From: Cavenderia fasciculata
Taxonomy: Eukaryota > Evosea > Eumycetozoa > Acytosteliales > Cavenderiaceae
Assembly: GCF_000203815.1 (NCBI RefSeq)
Contig: NW_004457723.1
Span: forward strand, 682,001 to 746,000
Length of the DNA: 64,000 nucleotides
Direction: 5' to 3'
The position numbers and the translations under genes are program-made. Shown piece after piece: positions 48,964 to 64,000 of this stretch. Position 1 is the stretch's first letter; every line of letters begins with the position of its first letter. The notes below the pieces were generated by a model. That model ran no database searches and was not told where the DNA came from. It saw nothing but the letters and a program-made list of their open reading frames with translations.

Positions 48964-49113
48964 TGTTAGAGGGGCAATTAAATTTACATACAAGCATAAA
49001 AACCCAAGGTTGTCTAGCTCTAGAATTTCTAATTTATTATTATTATTATGTAATTTTAATTCATTATGTTATACTAGTATAGTATATCTGTATAGACAAG
49101 AGATAAGAAAGGA

Positions 49114-51353
49114 ATGGAAGAGGATGATGACAATAATAATAATGATAACAATGTTGTATCTATGCCAATCTTTATAACATTTCAAAGTATATTTAGAATA
49201 AGTGTTATAAGAAACAAAGTGTTTGGTATGATGAAAGAATTACCACATGGTTGTAACAGAGTTGATGATAATAATAATAATAATCATAATGGCCAGTATA
49301 TTAAAGGAAAGGAGTTACTTAGACTATCACCAATGACATGGCTCGCAAAGTATGGTTTGTCATGGGACTATGTTAAACATTATCTACCGATAAAGACACT
49401 GGACAACATCGATTTGGAGTGTCGTAGTGCAATGATAAATGCTTATATATGTCACAAGAATGCAACCATTGACACTCTCAAACAACTATTGCAATGGTCA
49501 CCCGACTTTGCATTCAATGATTACGTTTGGCAAGAACAGTTGTTAAGGGGTAACGAGGCGATAACAAAGTTTCTCGTTCAAAACTACCCAGATCAAGTCA
49601 AGTTTGATCATGTTCAAGCAATACAAGCATGTGCATCTGGTAGTGTTCCATTGGTTTGTTGGTTACATGAATCTATGCATTTAAACGACGAATGGTTTTC
49701 ACTTGATTGTGCTTGTACTGGTAGTAGTACCAGTACCTCTTGTTCAACCACGTCGTTGGAGATGGTCAAATGGTTACACTTTAACATTAAACGAGCAATT
49801 TGTACAGTGCGGGCAATAGATGCAGCTGCCTATCATGGAATGTATGATGTTGTTTCTTTTCTTTTAGAAAATCGTACAGAGGGATATTCAACACGCTATC
49901 GATGGTGCAGCTGCAAATGGTCATATGAATATTATAAAGGTAAAGAAAACAATAGATACAGACAGATCTGTAGATATACACTCTTTCTTTCTTTATTAAA
50001 ACATTAATGTTTTTTTATTTAATAATGATGGATGTATCTAGTTAATTCATAATCATTTTCTCTCTAAAGGTAAAGATCTTAGTAAAAAGAATCTTTGGTC
50101 TCAAAAGGGATTGGATATGGCAGCATCAAATAACCATCTTGATATTTTAAGATATCTAGTAGTAAATAATAGTAGTGTAGATTGTACAACTGTTGCATTT
50201 CACAATGCTTCAAAAAATGGACATCTTTGTATGGTGGAATGGTTGCATGAGAATCAAAGTCATGTTTGTTGTGAACCTAAAAAATCTATTGACCAAGTGG
50301 CTAGAAATGGGCATTTAAACATGATAAAGGTTTATATATATATATCTGTAGAAAATCAAAACATTATTATTATTATTTATTTACCTAAATTTCTCTTTTA
50401 ACAAATTTTAGTATTTTTATGAAAAATTAAACTGTACAGGAGGACAACCTCTTCTAAGTGCTTCTGTTGGCGGACATTTACATATAGTATCGTATCTTTT
50501 AGAAAATAGTAAAACAAGTACGTGTTTGTTTAATTATTGATCAAATTGATTGACGTTCATTAATCCTTTTTTTTTTTTTTCTACCAAGATGAAAATAATT
50601 TAAAAATGGATGCTATAGCTGCTAACGGACATTTACATATTTTACATTATTTATTAGAGAATGGAATCAAGTTATATGCTTTAAACACTATTGTTCATGC
50701 TATTCGTGGTGGTCCACATTTAGATGTTATTCGATTTATAGTTTCCAATCATTTGCAATGGATTTGTCGTTTGGAAGAGGTAAAAGAAAAGAATAGAGCA
50801 AATCATGCATTTTGTTTGGCTATCATGAGTGGTCACCTTGGCATGGTCGAATTTATTCACTCTATAATCCAATCAACCGAATTATTATCATTGACCGAAC
50901 CTTTAGATATTGCTTGTGGTAGTGGTCATTTTGAAATTGTAAAGGTAGTTAAATCAAAACATCATCATCCATTGTATTATTATTATTAATATTATTAATA
51001 TTACTTAATTATTACTGATTTTATTTATTATTTATTATTTATTATTTCAGTATCTACACTCAAAAGGTTTCAAATGTACAACTAATGCAATGGACAATGC
51101 AGCTAGCATAGGTGCCACTGATATTGTCAAATTCCTTCATGAGAATAGGAGTGAAGGATGTACTATGAAAGCACTTGGATCTGTAACATTGGGACGTTGT
51201 TGGGATATTGAAATTGTGAAATTCTTGCATAGCAATAGGTCAGAAGGTTGTTTACCTGATGCTATGGACAGATCTTTACAACTCGGTTTCCTACATATAG
51301 CTCATTTCCTTTATAATAATAGACATCAAGTCAATCTACAAGTACACAAATAA
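49114..51353 (+). CDS. Dictyostelid ankyrin-repeat protein
   Basis: Five exons (49114-49939, 50070-50329, 50412-50517, 50589-50944, 51051-51353) give 616 residues. After an acidic/Asn N-terminus comes the family start FQSIFRISVIRNKVFG, then many degenerate ankyrin units of the dictyostelid type: GHLHIVSYLLENSKT, NGHLHILHYLLENG, GATDIVKFLHENRSEGCT. Introns often fall right after the IIK/IVK of a repeat, as is normal for the family. At about 49893-49939 the reading frame gives YRWCSCKWSYEYYK where the next frame gives a perfect repeat segment, HAIDGAAANGHMNIIK; the splice to exon 2 is nevertheless in phase with the frame used. Function and partners are unknown; these proteins are numerous and fast-evolving. 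Confidence 0.85.
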
Positions 51354-51572
51354 ATATATTTTTATTTCAACACCCATCCACCATTCCATTCCAAACATTG
51401 TCTGCATACCAAATCATATGATAATTTGTTCTTAATAGTAGTAATCTAATAATTTATATAAATAAAATTTAATTCAAAAATTTTCTAAAGAGTAACAAAC
51501 ATTTTTAAATGTTTATTTTTAATTTGATTTATTTAATTTTCTTCCAAGTTTAATTTAACAAATTGGAGGAAT

Positions 51573-51613
51573 TCAGATAAATAGATTTGGTTTATCTTGT
51601 TTTTCTTCTTTGT

Positions 51614-51667
<54 letters not shown>

Positions 51668-52803
51668 GTTGTTGATACATTGTATGGATGAATCCATTTG
51701 TAATGGTATTCTTATGAATGTTGTGATTATAGATATCATGAACAAACCTAACCAAATCCATATCATTTTTTATATATACCAGTCGTAGTATGGAAGGTGT
51801 TATTTCAATCTTGTTGCCTTGATACAAATAGTTGAACAAATCCTTGTTTGGACATTCCATCATTGCTACTATATCATTATCTGTTAAAATGTATGGTTTC
51901 CTATATATATATATATTTCTTTGTTGTTGTTGTTGTGGTAGTAATTATTTTCTTTTTTCCTCCTTTACTTTTTGTTGTTTGAAGCTTTTCAACTTTCTTT
52001 TGTTGTTTCTCTTGAAATGATTCTAAAACTTTATAGATTTCCAAATCACCAGTCTCTACAATTCTCTTGAAATCTACTTTTTCAAGCCAATCAACAACGT
52101 TGTTGTTGTTGTTATCGATTGCCAAACAATCTTGTAGTACTGCTTCCAACACTTTTGTGCCACGTGGAAGAGGAATGAGATGTCTGTCGACCACATATTC
52201 CTTTAGATGGTTGGGTGTTGTTGCCAAACGTATCAACAGTAATCCAAAGTCAGATTGGGGTGTTGGGAATTCAATGTGACCACAATCGCGCATATATTGG
52301 TAGAATTCAATGTTGTTTGATCTGACTGCTTCCATCCAAAATTCGTAGCATTGTGATACATCCACTTTCAAATCTTGTTTGAGTGTAACCAGTACTTGTC
52401 GTAACAGTGCAATGTCAACCCTTAGTATTGGATTCCGAGCCAAGTAATAATTGATTGGACGTCTTGTGAATGGCTCGACGCCCTTTACTGCAATCATTTG
52501 TTTAAAATGATTGATATTTAACAATGGACATGTTAAAAAGTCATACAATGCATTGTATCCGCCGTCAACGTCAGAAGGTGACATCCTATTTTTGAGCTTT
52601 GGTAAGGTTGCTAACAAGTGTTGTCTATATGGTACTGTCTCTTTGATCCAAGAGAAAATGGATGCTCTCAGTACTTTATTCCTCCATATACATTGAAATA
52701 ATCTTTCTTTTGTTATCTCTATTTCTTTTCTTTGTTCTTGTCTTTGTTGTCGTTGTTGTAGTTTCTCTTTCTTTTTTTTAACATTATTCTTTCGTCTTGC
52801 CAT
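51573..52803 (-). CDS. Dictyostelid ankyrin-like family protein
   Basis: Two exons (51969-52803, 51573-51880) sum to exactly 381 codons (380 residues). A very basic start with Arg/Lys/Gln repeats leads into LFQCIWRNKVLRASIFSWI, the same kind of N-terminal helix as the neighbouring ankyrin gene (FQSIFRISVIRNKVFG). Degenerate ankyrin-like helices follow: CYEFWMEAVRSNNIEFYQYM, FKRIVETGDLEIYKVLESF and LRLVYIKNDMDLVRFVHDI. A long poly-Gln tract is near the C-terminus, encoded by a CAA run at about 51613-51675. The intron junction was chosen because it alone keeps the frame (phase 1, acceptor TTTTAACAG). It is tail-to-tail with the ankyrin gene, so the two may be an inverted duplicate pair. Function unknown. 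Confidence 0.75.
51613..51675 (-). repeat. CAA run coding poly-Gln
   Basis: A CAA triplet run (read on the minus strand) broken by one CGA codon, translated as two Gln tracts near the C-terminus of the ankyrin-like protein. Confidence 0.9.
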
Positions 52804-53012: not shown

Positions 53013-56000
53013 TTATTGAGTAATATAAATAATCATATTTCTTTGATATGATGTTTGGGATGGTAAGATTGTGAATATTTGACTATTATTTGGTACGATT
53101 AACATGGGTGTTAGGGTGTCAATGTGGATAGAGTACTGACCAGGCGAAGAGACTGTAAAGTTGTAATGACCAGGATTATTTGGGTCAAATGAACCTGCAA
53201 TGATTAGTCCACTAGACAATTGCTTTAAACTAAACTGACACTCTGTAAATATCTTGTCGGATGGTGGATTAAAGAGATTGTTGTAATCTGATTCTCTCCA
53301 AAAGAATCCATAAATACTGATGGGAAGAGAGATGTTGTTTGATAGTTGACCACCAACTTGTACTTGAATATTTGTAATCGAGGTGAGGTCTGTCGAACTA
53401 TAATGGACACATTGGGTAGTAGTGTCATTAAAGTAATAGTTGTAGGGACAATTAATTGATGGTTTGTTGTTGTTGGAGTAGTGGACAATCGATGCCGAGC
53501 TAGGGTTTATCGAATACGGTGGATTCTCTGGTACAAGGTTGGTACCACGAATAATATAGGTTCCGCCGATAGCAACAGCATGTGAAATGGTTGGAGGAGC
53601 ATAGGAAAAGGTTATCTTTGATGGAAGAAGTATTTGACCATTGACAGATGCATTGATCACCATATTACCTCCTACTCCACGTGGAACTCTACACTCTACA
53701 AACGTCTCAAATGGACGACAGTTACCTAGTATGATTGGAGGTTCGCTGGTCAGAGGTTGCTGGATAGAGACAAAGTCAATGCCCAATGGAGAATTACCCC
53801 AACCATATCCACTAAATGCAATTATACCACCGGTATTGGTCGACAATAGTGAAGAGACGTTGGTGATAATTGGAGCAAGATACTTGAATTGATTAGATGC
53901 ACCTGCAGTCATACCACCAGCTACAACCCATACCTTTGGTGCGATTGGGAATGGTTTTCCAATTGGTACCTTTGCCATTACATAATTATTGGTGTAATTG
54001 ACAATATCCAATATAGTATCTTCCAGAGCTACGATTGGTGCTACTCCTTGACCACTATCAACAAAAGCATCACCATGAATAACAATATAATCTCTTGGGT
54101 CACCTTGTGAAGGGAGGACATCATCGATTCTTGGTGGTTCGTAGAATATCAATGGTGATCCGATTGATAGTTGAGTGTGTTGGTTGGCTACACCGACCGA
54201 TACAAGTGTAAACTTTGTAACCATTGGTGGTGATCGACAAAGAATAATGTATCGTGAGACAGACTGTGGCGTGCAAACATACGTGTTGTCAAACAATACT
54301 TTAACATCTGACAATGAGGTTCCAAAGTTATCTCCGGTTACTGTAATGAGTTGATTACCATTACTGTTGATCATATTGGATGGAGTCACTGACTCTATTT
54401 CAGGTGCATTTAGGTCAAATGTAAATGTTGATCTTTGTAGATTATAACCTCTAATCTTGACGAGATTGTTTGTTCCGACCACCGACAAGGGTAGTTTGAC
54501 GTGTGCACTGGTCGAATCAAACAGTTGGACGGATGGACTTGGCACACCTCCCACTTCAAACACATGCGATGTGTTGAACCCATTACCCATGATGGTCAGA
54601 GTAGTTGACGCGTCTCCAGAGGGCGGGTTAATCAACTCGATGACCGGGCCTGTGAATCGCGTGCAAATAGGGTAGGTTGGATAATTGTCAAATTGCGAAA
54701 AGTTGGCCATTTGAATATCACATAGTTTCGAGTTGAGTGTTGCAATAGCCAGTCCCTCATAATACTTTATGTAACCACTTCCACTGTCTTGGTACGATGA
54801 TGCTGGTTTGGGGATATAGTAAATCTCCAAGTCTCCAAACGATAATAGATCCCAACTGTGTTGATTAGATACCATCATTTGCTTGAGTAGTTGAGTGATG
54901 GTGTAGATGGACATTGGTGAGCATATTTGGATGGATCCAGGTGTTTGGTCATCCAACACACCATCTCGATAACACAATTCAATTGGATGGGTAGAGATAT
55001 GGTCACGATTCATCTCCTCGAGGAATTTGATCACCTGGTTACCAGACTGTGTCTTTGGTTCAACTAGTAATAGTTTGATCGCTTGATTGACTCCTGCAAT
55101 GGTTTGCCAATCATCAAGTGATCCAACAAGCTTCATAATATTACGTTGACTCTGATTTAAAATATCAGATTGTTTAATATAATCGGTTGGATCATTAAAC
55201 AATTGTACAAGTGCTGGTGTTACTAAATCTTCTTTTAACCAATCATACATTTGTATGTGTTCTTGATTATTTTTACCAAGGTGGAGTGAAGAAAACATTG
55301 TTGTAACCGTTGTAGTTGTAGTTGTAGTTGTAGTTGGTAGAGGTGGACGAATTTGAATATACCGATTATAAAGAATATTTTTGTTGGTTTCAGTATGAGT
55401 TGGTGCTGGAAGTGTTGGTAATAATAGAGTCATACTATTAATATTTTGAGCAGTGGTAAGAGTTGCAATGGAATTGAATAGATCAACCCATTGAACATTA
55501 ATATCACCAACTTGCTTGCCTACAGATGCTCCATGTTCATCGGCATAGTCATTATTTAACCAATCCCATGCTGCACTTGCACTTCTATAGAATAATTCCT
55601 CGTCACTTGGATTATTCATATTTGGTTGATTCTCTTCATAACCAAAAATATTTAAAATGTTGGTCGTAGGTGTTTTAAATTTATCAAAGTATGTAAAACA
55701 TACTTGGAAATCTGTTGTCCCAATAGTTCCTGTTAATTCCTTTAAAAAAAAAAAAGATAAATATCAGTTAGTAAAATAATAATCAATATGTTTTCTTTTA
55801 AAATACATTAAAAATGAATTTAGAAATAGCAAATATAATTCCATTTGCCCAATTTGGTTGGATTTCATCGGTTTTGAATATAGATTGAATAGCTTGTTGA
55901 GGGAATATAGAGGCAATTTTGAGGAGTGCTAAATAGGTCAATTCCTCTGGACAATAGGTACCAGTGTTTCTCATTAAAACCTTGTGTGAATGTTTATAAA

Positions 56001-59000
56001 ATGGCGAGTCAATGTCTGGCTTGACGATGGTTTGGAATTGAGTATTTGTCAAGTCAACAGATGCAATTAATAGAGGTTGGATGTGATCAACTAGTTTCTC
56101 TAAATAAACGATGGTGTGGTAGTCGGGGATGAGTGTCACGTCATAGTCACGGGTATATGTTTGTAGACGAAGATAGCTGTATTTGTCAACCCTTTGATTG
56201 GGTCTAGTGTTGGGAGGAAGAAGAGGGTAGTCTGGAATAGGGAGGGGGGTGGTCTCGGTGATTTGTGTAGTTCTTGCTTGTGATAATTGAACACATTCTG
56301 TTTGATCACCATCAATGTCAAAAATACCATCATAGTAATCACAAACAATGGCTCTACTATTCTTTGCTACAAAATCCAATGCCATGGTGTCGTGTGCGTG
56401 AAAGTCGACAATATCCCTGACAGCTGTTCCAACTGGCAAAGTTGATTCTTCTTGACCAATTTCATTTGGATCGAGGTGAGTACGAATAGCAAGTACTTTA
56501 ACTTCATGCACCGGTGTTGTAAACCCACTGTCAAAGTGTCTTGGAATCATCCTCGTACTCGGTCCATTGACAAGTACTTCTTTCACCTCGACTGTGATTT
56601 CTCCCTGGTCACCAACCGGACGGTTTAATTGAACCGGTTGACGAATCCAATTAGAGTAAAACAATCCGTTGTTTTTAGTATGAGGGGTACCCAGTATACC
56701 AGCAGAGTTTGGAACTCTAGTCGAGTAAATATGGACCATTCTATTGAGTTGGTATGACAACTCTGGATGTTGAATACATAGTGCACCACCACCTCTTCTA
56801 CCCTGATTATTATGACGATTCAAATCACCAAAACAAACCATGTTTTCATTTTCGTCATGCCAAAAAGCAGGGTCCATTTGTGGCCGCACTGGAAAAAGTA
56901 ATTTGACATGACTTCCTCCTTGATGAACATGTGGTTTATAACCAGAGGGAGCTGTTACATCTTCGGCAATATAGGGAGCATAACGAATGGTTGAAACATC
57001 GACCAAATACTCTGTTACAGGGGTCTGTTTACCAGCCAAATAATAATATGAAAACATTTTCCTCTGGAATTCACTAGCTACAATACTCCAAAGATCAATT
57101 CCATCATAAAACTAAATAAATATTGATAATAAATAAATATTAATATTTAAAACTATGGTCAATTATTATTATTAATTAACTTCAATTTTATCGTTTACAT
57201 ACCTGACCACGACGACTACCACGATTAACAGATAAATAATCTGAGAGAACTAGGCCAGCAGGTATATTATTTAGATCTAATCTAAAAGTTGAAGTAGTCT
57301 TTGAAATTAAACTAGTCTTGTAGAAAAGTTTGGCTCTCATTCCAGATATTCTAAATTCTGGTGATACCCAATAACAAATATCGAGAAGATTTTGTTGGAT
57401 GGGTAGTGCAGCTCTACAGAGATTGATTTGGTCTTGTCTGTTGGGAGCATACACCAGAGGTGGGCCAGCACTCAGAATACGTCTGTTCCAGCGCCCAGAT
57501 GGTTGCAAAAAGTCATATAAATAGGGATTGGCATCGATACGTTGTTGGTCCCATGACTCTAACCCATTTTGTACGAGGTGAGGGATATTTGGATACTTTG
57601 AGAATGGTAACATATAGACATCATTCTTGAAAAGATATTCACCCGCATTATTTAAATCATCTATTCCATAACAAAAGAAATGTTGATTATTTCTTGCTGT
57701 TCCAAGCCAATATATACCTTTATCTGGTGTTCTAAAAAAATTAAAATAATAAAAATTAAAATAATAAAAATAATTAATATTATTAATATGCATATATTTG
57801 ATATATATATTGTTTATATGACATACGCAAATTTTAATGGACCATTTGAATGAGATGAGGGGAAACCAGGGTTAGAGTGAATAATATGAATACCACGTAT
57901 ACCAGCACCATTTGGTAAATCCTCCCAAATAAATATTCCTTTTGAATGACCTATAAGCTTCTCTGGCCATTCATGAGCGAAATCACCATTGGCTGCTCTT
58001 TGTGCAGGTTGGTCATTGTAGAATATGTAATAGTAACCGTCGTCTGTCAGCTGATCAAAGGTTGCAGCTAGTAGATTGTATGGTCGATGGTCGCTAGTAC
58101 GTTCAGCTCCAAGGTTGTAGCCAACCGTCAGTTCTTTGGTCGAATCATCTATCCACATATACTTTTGTTCCGATGATGCCCAATTCATCTTGAGTACCAA
58201 GAACCAATCCCTTGAAGGATTAGATCCATCCGCTTCATCTTGACCCAGACAAGACAATGTTTGAGCGTTGAATGTCACGCTGTCTCCATCGGTTGCTACG
58301 ATATTGGTGGTAGGATGAGTGACGGTTACTTTAACGTCTAACGGTCCAATATCATCTCCTCCATCTCTTGTACATTTGACATTTGTATCGGGTATCGTGA
58401 TCACTGGATTAGTACAAACATGACCACCAATAGTAATTTGAATTAAATTATTAGCAGTTCCAAACCCTTGACCTACAATCTCAACCTTGACCTTTTTCCT
58501 TCTTGGCCATTGTCTTGGTGCGACAGAGTTAACGATCGGTCCCGCATACACAAGTGTTTGGGCTGCTGTAACTACAACTTGATTGTCTTGTAATTGTAAG
58601 GTAACTGGATAGTTACCTGGACGACTTGCAGGTCTCTTACATTTGAGTGTTGTAGTAGTTTGTAATGTGCAATCGGTTGCAATAGGGATTTGAATCGAAT
58701 TCACAACTACACCCAAAACTTGATCCAAACTTGTTCCAGTCATTGTAAAATAATCACCTCCTGATGGTGATTCCGAATCTGATACAATATTAGTTACAGT
58801 CACATCTAATTGGAATTAAAATAAAAAATGATTAATAAATTGAGTGATCCTCAAGTAGACCTTTTAATTTGTATCATACCATAATAAGTAAAATCGATAA
58901 AAGTGTTAAATGATTGACCAAACAAATCAAATGTGATTGGAAAGGTACCAACCTGACGGTATTGAACATCTGCCAATTTACATTTAAATTTGGTGTCTTC

Positions 59001-61182
59001 ACCGTCTGCGACGGGAGCCATTTCAATCTCTTGACATCCCTGTCCATTGATTTTAAATTGATAGTATTTTTGTAAAAGTTGACTATCAACAATAATAGTA
59101 GTAATGTCTGGAATAGGAATAAAGTTTGAAACTTGAATGACAATAGATTTAGATAGAGTATTGATAAAACTCTTGTCATTATCAATATTCAAGATTTTAG
59201 GTTCTAAATAAATAAATAAAAATATTTTTAATTCATTAATAAAAAAGGTAATAATATAATATAATATTATTCAATAATTATTGAATTCATACCTTTAAAT
59301 AATAAAGATAAAGTTGAAGTGGAAATTTGATCATCAACCTCACCAGTGATAAGGATTGGTTGATCTAGAATAGCATTTGTTTGTAATGAAGAATCTAGTT
59401 TAACGGTCAAGAATCCACCACTACCTTGATTTAAAAGATCATCATGATCCAAATCATCTCTTGTAAATTCTTGTTGACCAACTATTAGTTTTGTCAATTG
59501 ATCTAAATTCTCTCCACGTATTCTAATTGATGTAAATCCCTTATTCACCATAAACAAAGGTTCAATTTTACTAAAATGAGTTTCTTTAAAGATAGATAAA
59601 TATAAATATTATACTTTTTGTTTTTTTTTTGTTACTTTTCTATATTTTTACAACATACCAAAATAATTAAATCTAACTTGGTCTGATGATTGAATATCAA
59701 TACTATCAATAGTTGCTTGAATATTAAATTCTAATGAATAAATATCTGTTGGGAATGGTTGAGTGTAGGGACCAGTCGTACATAATACACTCGTTTCAGA
59801 TACAGATAGTGTATCAATATCGCAACCAACCCCACCAATATTGATAGATGAAACTAATTCCAAATGAGCTCCTTCAATTTGAATTTGTCTACCTTTGGTT
59901 TTTAATCCATTTGATGGATTGATTTGTGAAATAATTGGTACTATAATTCAATTAAATAATACTAACATTAGATTATAATTAGATGTTTGTTATGTTTCAA
60001 AAATTTACATACCAAATGATTTATAAAAAATATCACCAACAACTCTAATGGTTGGAAGAGGACTTGGTTGAGGTACAGATACAGCAATTTGATATAATTT
60101 TTGGTGACCGGCTTCGATACCAGTGATGATTGGAATTATGCATTCAATCTGATCAAAACGATGATTGACGATTGCACTTTCACAAGCTACCGTTTGGGTA
60201 CTATCCAAACTATCAATAAATGTTACTGTTATAGCATCAACTATACTAGTATCGGGAACAATAAAATGTTCTCCAAATATTGTAAGTGTATGACTATTTA
60301 AACAAATTCCATTTTTTGATACACCTTGAATAATTGGAACTAAATAAATAATAATTAATTAGTAAAATACTTTAAATTTAATAAAGAAGTTAAGATGTTG
60401 TTGTGGGTACTTACTGACATAAGAGAATGGATCATATGCAACAACAGTTTGACCGGTATAGACAGTCAAGATAATTGGGACATCTTCAACTTTTTGAGAG
60501 ACGGGTGCTTCTACCACAATCAAATTACTATGAGCTATTTGGACGGGTGCATCGTATCCTCCAATCGTAACGGTTGGATCATCATCAGTTGGATTAATCT
60601 TAAAGTCATCTCCTATAATAGTAACCAATCCACCAAATGGTTTTCCACCAACATAAGCTCTATCATTTTCAACTTCATCAATAAATGGTTCTTTTTTTTT
60701 TTAATAATAAATATAAATAAACAACTTTAAAAGTTAGTATATAATAATATTATTTTGTTTAAAATAGAGAATAAATGTGTCATACCAAGATAAATGAATT
60801 CTCTTTGATCGACAATAGCAGAATTGACAATGATTTCAAGTTTGAGTGTTGCTTTTGCCAAACCATTGAGTTTACGCTTTCTATTGATCGAAGTTGGATC
60901 TGCCCAAATACCTGGTGGAGCAGGTGGCGAGCTATAGACTAGCCAACCATCAACCGATGTTTCTACAAACGTACAGAGATATTCTAATTGTGCAAATGTG
61001 ATTCTAACCTTTTCAATGGTCGATTGATCAATACCTGATATTTTAATCAGTGATCCTCCATTGGTGTAGGCAGCTGCACTCTGTACAACGATTTGTGCAT
61101 GCACCAATACTAGTACTTGACTACTTGACAATAATCCTATTAGCAACAACCCTAACAGCCTGTGTGCCAATAAAGATATCAT
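53013..61182 (-). CDS. Giant secreted protein: IPT/TIG repeats - DNase II - IPT/TIG repeats
   Basis: Ten exons (60786-61182, 60415-60690, 60013-60339, 59659-59940, 59293-59583, 58880-59203, 57827-58805, 57203-57731, 55807-57111, 53013-55739) sum to exactly 2,479 codons. A signal peptide (LLGLLLIGLLSSSQVLVLV) starts it. Residues to about 815 are a chain of IPT/TIG Ig-like repeats, most with a boundary near an intron (VPIIQGVSKNGICLNSHTLT, PIVNSVAPRQWPR). A DNase II domain covers about 820-1255: WFLVLKMNWASSEQKYMWID, YNDQP, GHSKG with the first catalytic His, HSNPGFP, then GSHVK with the second catalytic His, and CFGDLNRHNNQGRRGGGALC. A unique ~670-residue region and four or so further IPT/TIG repeats follow. 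No TM or GPI signal is seen, so it should be secreted or lysosomal. Acid nuclease activity is likely. Confidence 0.88.
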
Positions 61183-62059
61183 CTTTATTCTCTCTATAAC
61201 TCTTTTCTAATGTAATGTAATTTACAATACAAGAAATATATTTTTGTTTGTTCTTCTACTGTACAACTAGAAATGATGTGATAGGAACCTAGGTCCTATC
61301 ACATCCACCTAACTGCCTACCAACCTACACCTAAGAAGATATGAGGTGATCCTTGTCGTTTGTACATCTTTTGCCAATCTCCCAACATGGCCACCAACGC
61401 TATGATGATGTTATTGGATGGGTATAATCTTTGCTCTGGTTTGTTAATCTACTTTAAGGAAACAAGATAGTAGAGTGCCAATCCGCATTTGGATGATTGA
61501 TTGGCCATTAGCACTAGCACTTCCTCTTTTGTCATCGTCCTTGTCGTCCATGGGGAGATATTTGCATCATTCATTGAATTTTTGTTTGGCCATCGTTTGG
61601 TTTGTTTGTTGATTGATGGAACATTCGTTGCTTGCATTTTCTAGTTGTGTCCCATTAAGTTGGTGTGGCACTTAACTCTTGCGTCTTTTGATTATCTCGT
61701 TGTATCTCGAGAGAATTATAAGGAAGCAGCTGACCACCAAATCTAATTTGATTTACTACTACTTTGGTGGCGCATGATAATGAATATGAATGCAATCACC
61801 ATCTACTCGCCGCATGATGGATGCTGCAGCTACTAATAGTAGGTAAGTTGTAGATTCGTTTCTACCCTTCTCTTTCCATCTTCCTTATTTGATAGTACTA
61901 TCTATCATAATTAATAATTAATAATAAACAAACAGACATACAGAGCAGAGATATATAATAATATAATATAATAATATAATAATATAATACAAAGAAGCAA
62001 TAAATAAATTAAAAAGGGTGAACTTCACAATAGAGTGCTTTTGAAAAGAATTGACAAAA
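61183..62059. promoter_or_regulatory. Divergent promoter region between the two DNase II-family genes
   Basis: About 880 bases with no convincing gene. It holds a 31-base near-perfect palindrome (61275-61305), a run of AATAT/ATAAT units (61949-61990) and a less AT-rich central part (61320-61850). The short minus-strand frame 61449-61637 shows no family features. Confidence 0.5.
61275..61305. promoter_or_regulatory. 31-base palindrome in the DNase II intergenic region
   Basis: The 12-base arm GATGTGATAGGA and its exact inverse are separated by ACCTAGG, itself almost a palindrome (CCTAGG). Only one base breaks the symmetry of the whole. It lies 93 bases upstream of the giant gene start codon and about 755 bases from the divergent gene; a binding site for a dimeric factor is possible. 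Confidence 0.6.
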
Positions 62060-64000
62060 ATGAGGTGGGGTACATTATGTTCACCGCCCTTTTCTTTTGC
62101 ACTATTATTGTTTAATATAGTTATATTATTATCAATAACAAATGTAAATGCACGTATGTAATCAAAGTCGGTTGAAGAATGTATTATTATTATTAACTTA
62201 CTCTGTTCTTATCATTTGAAGAAATCAAATGTATATCACCTGGTGGAGACAAGGTAACATGGTGGTTAGCAAGAAAACTACCGTTTACACAAAAGTATAT
62301 CTATTGGAGTAGTGCCAGCAATGATATTCAGGTGTACAACTCGATTAGTGATGATGACAGTTGTCTCGGACGTACACTCGACCAGCTGACAAACACTGTC
62401 ATTGCAAACACTTCGTCTACAGGGACCGCCTATTTGGCATTCAATAATGAACCATACTATGACGACGGCTCGGGTGACATTGCACCTGCAATGATGGGTG
62501 TTCTACCCTTAGATACACAACAATGGGGAAAGGGTCTACTCATCTACCGAAAGGAGCAAGGTGGAGGTGTCTTTATCAAACATTCTCTGCCATCGTTTCC
62601 CATCCCTATCAGAGGGTCTATCACATCTGTCAAGAAACCATCAGATAATCCTAATGGATTATGGTACCCTAAAGAGTATTTAGTCGGTACACCACCACTA
62701 GAGTTTGATCAACAAGATGATGTATCTCTTGGTCACTCGTTTATGTGTGCACCCAGTGCCCCGATTGCCGATATGGCCGATATCATCAAGTATGGGTATC
62801 CACATGTCTATGCCTCTAATCTCGGGCTGGCACCTACCGCCATTCCAGAACTAGACACTATTATTCGAAATGATCCAATCAACTCTTATTCAAGAGCAAC
62901 GTCGACTGTCCAATTCTATTATATTGGTGCACTTGGGTTCCCAGGATTCTATAGTACTGCTCCAAACTTTAATGTTACTATTCCAGTATGTTTAGGTTAT
63001 AAACTCCTCAAAATATAAATATACATATATGTTATAAATATACTTACCACTATCTATTATCTAACTAATTTAGAGCAGATATAATATTAAAAGTAGTATT
63101 AATGCAATCACTGAAATAAGATTACCAGAGGATTTTATCAAACAATACAATATATCAAGATCACTGGCTCATTGGAGTATGGATGTTGATATGTCACGTC
63201 TAATGTTTTCAAAGGATCAAATTTGTATTATGGATTATACAAATGAAGGTGTAAGTTAAGTTAATCATATAAACCAACAAGATCGATATTAATATTTCTA
63301 TTTTTATTTTTCTTTTAGAATGGAAATTATATGCTTTGTGTAATTGGGTTACCATTTAATGATAAAGGAAAACCTTGGTCACAGTTTATTCAACGATCAA
63401 CTGTCAGGTATATTACTGGTTGTGTGGGTACATCATGTTCAACCAATCAATTGCTAGTCAACTTTTTAACAACGTTTAGTGGAAAGGTATTGTTTGATAT
63501 TAGTGCATTCACCACCAACTCTGATGCCGAGCAAATTGGTGATATTAGATCATATGCAAGACTTGTAGAAACCACCTTTTTACCAAATACAACCATTACC
63601 ATTGGTAGTAGTGATGTGCAAGCATGTGACGAAACATGTTTGAGTAGATTCTCTGAAAGATATATCTACCAAACAGACTCTACCGGTTTATTGCATTTTG
63701 AAAAAGCAATGGAGAAATCAATACTCTTTTCATTACAATTGTCAAGTAGTAGTAATGGTGGTACTGGTAGTGTCAGTGTCTACTGGAATGATAATAGAGA
63801 ATCTCCACAACTCGTATCAATTCCAATCGATCGTTCAACAGGAGTTGCCATAGTTGGCAGTCAATCGTCGTTGACCTATGCCATATTTATTTACAAGGTA
63901 TTATGTATCTTTGAACCAATTCGTCAACAATGGTTAAGTACTAGTAGTGGTGTTGGTATTAATATATCAACTGTTCAAGTTCATCTTGACCGTATCAATC
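62060..64000 (+). CDS. Secreted DNase II-like protein, catalytic residues apparently lost (3' partial)
   Basis: Exons 62060-62153, 62222-62985, 63074-63250 and 63319 to beyond the window end. A signal peptide (FALLLFNIVILLSITNVNA) precedes a DNase II-like fold: CISPGGDKVTWWLARKLP, an FNNEP motif (YNDQP in active enzymes), VFIKHSLPSFP, WYPKEYLVGTP and GHSFMCAP. The place of the first catalytic His, GHTKG in DNase II, reads QWGKG. The second, normally HSK followed by CxGDxNR and RGGG-x-LC, reads DMSRLMF, then CIMDYTNEGNGNYMLC. Both catalytic histidines therefore look replaced, and it is probably a pseudoenzyme or has another role. At least 220 further residues of unknown type follow. It is divergent from the giant IPT/TIG-DNase II gene. 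Confidence 0.8.

What the first reader, a model, noticed from the sequence alone, without database searches (positions are those of the whole stretch)
53013..61182. A DNase II domain built into a 2,478-residue IPT/TIG-repeat secreted protein
The sequence shows ten exons that join in perfect phase into one protein: signal peptide, N-terminal IPT/TIG repeats, a full DNase II domain with both catalytic His motifs (GHSKG and GSHVK), a long unique region, then more IPT/TIG repeats. IPT/TIG repeats in amoebae are known from cell-surface adhesion and recognition proteins (Tgr type); DNase II is a stand-alone lysosomal acid nuclease in animals. A nuclease displayed in an adhesion-like scaffold suggests a secreted or phagosomal protein that binds and digests DNA of prey, dead cells or extracellular traps. 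The fusion as such is, to my knowledge, not a described architecture.
Basis: partly seen in the sequence, partly recalled or inferred. Interest (0 to 1): 0.78.

Follow-up and report, generated by a model that had tools for sequence, protein, structure and literature searches.

The report
Paired DNase II–adhesion giants in amoebae
A social amoeba encodes a giant, probably secreted protein with a DNA-cutting enzyme built into an adhesion-type scaffold, and most copies of this gene lie head-to-head with a second giant gene whose DNA-cutting site is lost, which hints at a two-part extracellular system.

Summary
In detail: ten exons splice in phase to 2,478 aa with a hydrophobic leader, eight IPT/TIG stretches (four before, four after the nuclease) and a DNase II domain with both HxK motifs. 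It is Cavenderia fasciculata DFA_07136. Eight further database proteins carry both Pfam domains; the named ones are from Heterostelium and Acytostelium. So the fusion is in databases, though my paper searches found no description.

The larger result lies outside the given coordinates. This gene (type A) faces, 877 bp away, a second giant DNase II-TIG gene (type B, from 62060) whose catalytic motifs are gone. My gene models give nine A/B pairs plus one extra A in this genome; eight of nine pairs are head-to-head. Both HxK motifs are kept in 8 of 10 A and 0 of 9 B. Separate A and B trees agree in their supported clades, so the pair seems to duplicate as a unit.

I read it as a secreted nuclease with a pseudonuclease partner. 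The layout resembles tgrB/tgrC recognition pairs, but the window protein shows no clear transmembrane segment. Activity, association and co-expression are inferred.

The parts
60786..61182 (-). A exon 1: start codon, hydrophobic leader
   Evidence: no TIG hit on its own
60415..60690 (-). A exon 2: TIG
   Evidence: 35.7 bits
60013..60339 (-). A exon 3: phase-1 exon of TIG size, no Pfam hit
59659..59940 (-). A exon 4: TIG
   Evidence: 43.5 bits
59293..59583 (-). A exon 5: phase-1 exon of TIG size, no Pfam hit
58880..59203 (-). A exon 6: phase-1 exon of TIG size, no Pfam hit
57827..58805 (-). A exon 7: two TIG, then first part of DNase II with HxK-1 (GHSKG, residue 918)
57203..57731 (-). A exon 8: middle of DNase II
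55807..57111 (-). A exon 9: end of DNase II with HxK-2 (GSHVK, residue 1201) and GDLNR..RGGG, then first part of region X
53013..55739 (-). A exon 10: second part of region X, four TIG, stop
61183..62059 (.). 877 bp between the two start codons
62060..62153 (+). B exon 1: start codon, hydrophobic leader
62222..62985 (+). B exon 2: first part of DNase II domain; HxK-1 position reads QWGKG
63074..63250 (+). B exon 3: later part of DNase II domain; HxK-2 position reads DMSR
63319..64000 (+). B exon 4, runs past the window; the model ends at G000:C7:751478

Best explanation
The gene is the catalytic (A) half of a duplicated, mostly head-to-head gene pair that encodes two giant exported proteins on one core: DNase II domain, region X, TIG array. 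Shown from sequence: both architectures, the arrangement, both HxK motifs kept in most A and lost in all nine B models, agreeing A and B trees. Inferred: A is exported to surface, matrix or phagosome and cuts DNA by the DNase II mechanism; B is a dead paralogue made together with A from the region between them; A and B associate through TIG arrays and/or the nuclease fold, and B binds, positions or restrains A. The substrate is probably extracellular or phagosomal DNA.
For: Domains and splicing. Ten A and nine B models; eight of nine pairs head-to-head; elsewhere 81 hand-copied TIG hits form 49 clusters with one head-to-head neighbour pair. HxK-1 kept in 8 of 10 A and 0 of 9 B; HxK-2 in 9 of 10 A and 0 of 9 B; GDxNR in 10 of 10 A and 0 of 9 B. 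In eight other database proteins HxK-1 is kept in 8 and HxK-2 in 7. B still matches DNase_II at 78.9 bits. Region X of A and B is homologous (hhalign 99.5%). A and B trees agree in supported clades.
Against: No activity, expression or binding data. C5 A has lost both HxK motifs and C17 A the first, and the C17 pair is not head-to-head. In the window protein the residue before HxK-2 is Ser, where the other A with the motif have Asp, Glu or Asn. A second A on C9 has no B found next to it. B was not found in other species, although that search also missed C. fasciculata's own B. No shared promoter motif beyond simple repeats and a few 8-9-mers. Several models have weak N-terminal leaders.
Confidence: 0.4

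Rival explanations
1. A works alone: an exported acid DNase held by its TIG scaffold on prey, matrix, corpses or traps. B has drifted to another job and is kept beside A by history.
For: Catalytic motifs in the window protein; A-type proteins in other species with no B found; an extra A without a near B on C9.
Against: B keeps domain order and open frames over about 2,000 residues, and pairs have stayed together through several duplications.
Confidence: 0.28
2. A recognition pair like TgrB1/TgrC1: A and B bind between cells or molecules, and nuclease activity is secondary.
For: Head-to-head TIG pairs in several copies, as for tgrB/tgrC (PMC12324515, passages; 523 bp shared promoter, PMC5288501, passage). 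Tandem copies differ most around the A DNase II in two of three A comparisons.
Against: No clear transmembrane segment in the window A or B. The divergent windows have raised dS and dN/dS about 0.4-0.6, which uneven gene conversion can explain. Catalytic motifs are conserved inside the divergent part.
Confidence: 0.14
3. B protects the cell that makes A: a decoy or inhibitor that keeps the nuclease silent until it reaches its target.
For: Paired active and dead paralogues made from one locus.
Against: No direct evidence; two A lack HxK motifs and still have a B.
Confidence: 0.08
4. Artefact: DNase II exons and TIG exons belong to separate mRNAs.
For: No transcript data were seen; the relatives are gene models too.
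Against: TIG and DNase II share exon 7, and DNase II and region X share exon 9, with open frame; the order recurs in other species.
Confidence: 0.03

Closest known systems
DNase II family (PF03265; solved structure 5i3e, also 5unb)
   Same: Two HxK motifs and the GDxNR..RGGG stretch; Pfam 87.9 bits
   Different: Inserted between TIG arrays in a 2,478-aa protein and followed by region X; animal DNase2 is described as two PLD halves with an HxK each and an active site between them (PMC9208542, passages)
TgrB1/TgrC1 and the tgr family of Dictyostelium
   Same: TIG repeats; paired diverging genes, several pairs per genome (PMC12324515, passages; PMC5288501, passage)
   Different: Tgr proteins are transmembrane; the window A and B show no clear transmembrane segment by hydropathy. 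No DNase II in tgr is known to me (recalled); I did not test it
DFA_07136 and eight database relatives (P0002-P0009)
   Same: Same two Pfam domains; A-type order over up to 2,462 columns
   Different: Automatic names only; P0009 begins with DNase II without N-terminal TIGs. Whether they have a B neighbour is unknown
DNase2b and Uox head-to-head pair of animals
   Same: A DNase II gene with a shared bidirectional promoter (PMC9208542, passage)
   Different: The partner is Uox, not a dead DNase II paralogue

Membership tests
DNase II (PF03265) | Profile match above the curated cut-off | tested here: met
   87.9 bits against 23
DNase II (PF03265) | Two HxK motifs | tested here: met
   Window A: GHSKG 918, GSHVK 1201. 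Not met in the window B: QWGKG, DMSR
DNase II (PF03265) | Acid, cofactor-free DNase activity | not testable with these tools
   Needs an enzyme assay
DNase II (PF03265) | Fold of two PLD halves | tested here: inconclusive
IPT/TIG domain proteins | TIG profile match | tested here: met
   8 stretches, E 1.6e-49; by exon
Tgr (tiger) family | Transmembrane protein with cytoplasmic tail | tested here: not met
   Hydropathy outside the leader peaks at 1.63 in A and 1.57 in B of the window; a simple scan, not a dedicated predictor
Tgr (tiger) family | Extracellular TIG repeats | tested here: met
tgrB/tgrC-like pair | Diverging gene pair with shared upstream region | tested here: met
   877 bp in the window; 8 of 9 pairs head-to-head
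tgrB/tgrC-like pair | Polymorphism among strains and role in allorecognition | not testable with these tools
   One genome only

The most novel reading that the evidence does not exclude
The Acytosteliales have their own recognition system, in the role that TgrB1/TgrC1 fills in Dictyostelium, made of head-to-head pairs of an active and a dead DNase II on TIG scaffolds, in which matching of A and B decides whether the nuclease is held silent or released on foreign cells or their DNA.
Probability: 0.08. Interest if true: 0.9.

Novelty: new variant of a known kind. Interest (0 to 1): 0.62.

Why it matters
IPT/TIG families are large in dictyostelids outside D. discoideum: one ortholog group has 43, 35 and 50 members in Acytostelium, P. 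pallidum and D. fasciculatum against 9 in D. discoideum (PMC4334915, table passage), and I saw no function given there. A repeated pair of an active and a dead nuclease on TIG scaffolds would give part of that expansion a testable function, and is a clear case of an enzyme and its dead paralogue staying linked as one duplicating unit.

Tried and rejected
Shared promoter motif: in six loci (C13 copies counted once) fifteen 8-mers and four 9-mers occur in at least four, mostly GA-, CAA- and ATG-type repeats, more than in shuffles (0.4 and 0.05), but no 10-mer; not used as evidence. Positive selection on the A DNase II: dN/dS about 0.4-0.7 in those windows, so not claimed. Fold of region X and of exon 9: mean pLDDT 46.1 and 34.5; Foldseek on the first gave no match at E <= 0.001. 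B relatives elsewhere: none; only P0010 (TIG and CUB; 23% identity over 37% of the query). Since C. fasciculata's own B proteins were not returned, and one search scored only the candidates sharing most words, this is no evidence of absence. Solved structures with P0005 gave only HGF receptor chains. B as membrane receptor: hydrophobic stretches in C13 and C9 B lie between TIG and SdrD_B-like sequence, so topology is unclear. One search, with a lower intron penalty, fused the window gene with the gene downstream, so the model was kept.

Full report
What was checked. The minus strand of 53013-61182 carries ten exons that join in phase to 2,478 residues; the nine introns are GT..AG, 67-95 nt and 8-23% GC, against 38% for the coding sequence; exons 2-6 start and end in phase 1 and are 276-327 nt long. 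The database protein DFA_07136 of Cavenderia fasciculata (P0001, 2,550 aa) contains the same 2,478 residues, with 72 more in front. The window lies in a genome of 31.0 Mb in 21 contigs.

Domains. Pfam finds eight TIG stretches and DNase II at 87.9 bits. By exon, TIG passes its cut-off in exons 2 and 4 and twice in exon 7; the end of exon 10 has four stretches; exons 1, 3, 5 and 6 give no TIG hit. HxK-1 (GHSKG) is at residue 918 and HxK-2 (GSHVK) at 1201. Against solved structures the only match up to E = 1 is 5i3e, a putative deoxyribonuclease-2, at E 5.9e-4; its GHTKG aligns with GHSKG, in a weak stretch of 1.4 bits. The aligner did not place GSHVK on that chain's HxK; the family alignment does, against DHSK/DHAK/EHAK. 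TIG and DNase II share exon 7 and DNase II and region X share exon 9, so the fusion does not hang on one splice junction.

The fusion elsewhere. A search with residues 815-1300 returned nine proteins, the window's own and eight others, all with both Pfam domains. Four are from Heterostelium album and one from Acytostelium subglobosum; three EukProt entries have no species name. The named species are all Acytosteliales; D. discoideum is in Dictyosteliales. The search needs shared words and did not return C. fasciculata's own other A genes, so absence from D. discoideum is not shown. Papers: searches found none, and among the titles and abstracts listed (10 of 254 listed) and 79 none was about this fusion. 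The library is open-access PMC only.

The partner gene. From 62060 on the plus strand, 877 bp from the A start codon, runs a second giant gene. Its model has 2,302 aa: hydrophobic leader, DNase II (78.9 bits), region X, five TIG stretches, a Thr/Gly-rich stalk and an SdrD_B-like end. The HxK-1 position reads QWGKG and HxK-2 DMSR.

Nine pairs. PF03265 gave 33 exon matches in the genome; PF01833 gave 150 scored of 449 candidates. My gene models give ten A (TIGs, DNase II, X, TIGs; C5 and C17 A are incomplete) and nine B (DNase II first). C5 A was not among the PF03265 matches and was found with the window domain. Pairs: C7 (the window), C2, C9, C14, C5, C17 and three tandem copies on C13; C9 has a second A. 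Eight of nine are head-to-head; C17 A and B lie on one strand, and 740000-747999 between them was not read. As a rough control, 81 of the 150 TIG hits, those away from these loci and copied by hand, form 49 clusters; three neighbouring pairs lie within 8 kb and one is head-to-head. The pairs are not independent: C13 is a triplication. N-terminal hydropathy is weak in C9 A1, C9 A2, C14 A, C17 A, C5 A and C2 B, so their starts and gap lengths are unsure; orientation does not depend on that.

Catalytic census. HxK-1 is kept in 8 of 10 A (lost in C5 and C17) and 0 of 9 B. HxK-2 is kept in 9 of 10 A (lost in C5) and 0 of 9 B; C2 B keeps the His as DHAR. GDxNR is kept in 10 of 10 A and 0 of 9 B; RGGG in 8 of 10 A (C5 reads KGGG, C14 RGSG) and 0 of 9 B. 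In the eight other database proteins HxK-1 is kept in 8 and HxK-2 in 7; P0006 lacks that stretch. The stand-alone gene at C7:1359580 keeps both. Three C12 genes keep HxK-1 as NHEKG; HxK-2 was seen in one of the three, the sequences having been cut at 400 residues. In the window protein the residue before HxK-2 is Ser; in the other A with the motif and in P0002-P0009 it is Asp, Glu or Asn.

Common descent. Region X of A (10 rows) and B (6 rows) matches by hhalign at 99.5% over 492 columns, so the 'long unique region' is shared, and Pfam gives it no family. Separate A and B trees agree in the supported clades (C9 with C17; C14 with the C13 copies); both put C5 on the longest branch, with a long-branch warning for C2 A with C5 A; C7 and C2 are unresolved. 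The simplest reading is an old pair that duplicates as a unit.

Divergence between recent copies. In C13b/c A, windows 751-1250, which hold the DNase II, are 65-68% identical; six other windows are 86-99%, but 1251-1500 is 75% and the tail after 2250 is 65-76%. In C9 A1/A2 the lowest window is 1001-1250 (67%), the others 78-99%. C13a/b A shows no such peak (63-68% over 1-1250). Synonymous change rises as well, so uneven gene conversion is enough to explain it. In the C13 B copies the DNase II windows are among the conserved ones (90-95%); dN/dS reaches 1.23 in one TIG window of one comparison.

How it most likely works. A is exported and cuts DNA; B, a dead paralogue that keeps the domain, is made from the same upstream region and acts on A as a partner. 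In animal DNase2 the active site lies between two PLD halves (PMC9208542, passages), and TgrC1 binds TgrB1 through TIG domains (title of a reference seen). Both offer a route for A-B contact; neither was tested. tgrB and tgrC are paired, diverging genes with one promoter and 1-9 pairs per genome (PMC12324515, passages), the closest known layout. The window proteins show no clear transmembrane segment, so I do not file them as Tgr proteins.

Verdict. The fusion is in databases but in no paper that I found. The active/dead head-to-head pair is the part that would surprise a specialist; its function is open.

Noticed in passing
window 61278-61302: A 25-nt near-perfect palindrome about 100 nt upstream of the A start codon; a genome-wide pattern search did not complete.
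   Followed up: partly
P0001 against window 61182: The database model of DFA_07136 has 72 residues before the start used here, which would place the hydrophobic leader inside the protein.
   Followed up: partly
L028 (G000:C12:1287000-1296999): Three neighbouring DNase II-like genes without TIG hits, with NHEKG at the HxK-1 position.
   Followed up: partly
G000:C13 B copies, residues about 1778-1806: A strongly hydrophobic stretch between the TIG part and SdrD_B-like sequence; it could be a transmembrane helix.
   Followed up: partly
G000:C2:1554048-1555424: Two diverging TIG hits away from the DNase II loci, a possible head-to-head pair of TIG genes without DNase II.
   Followed up: no
window 49096-52803: ORFs on both strands that look like ankyrin-type repeat proteins of dictyostelids (recalled resemblance; not tested).
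   Followed up: no
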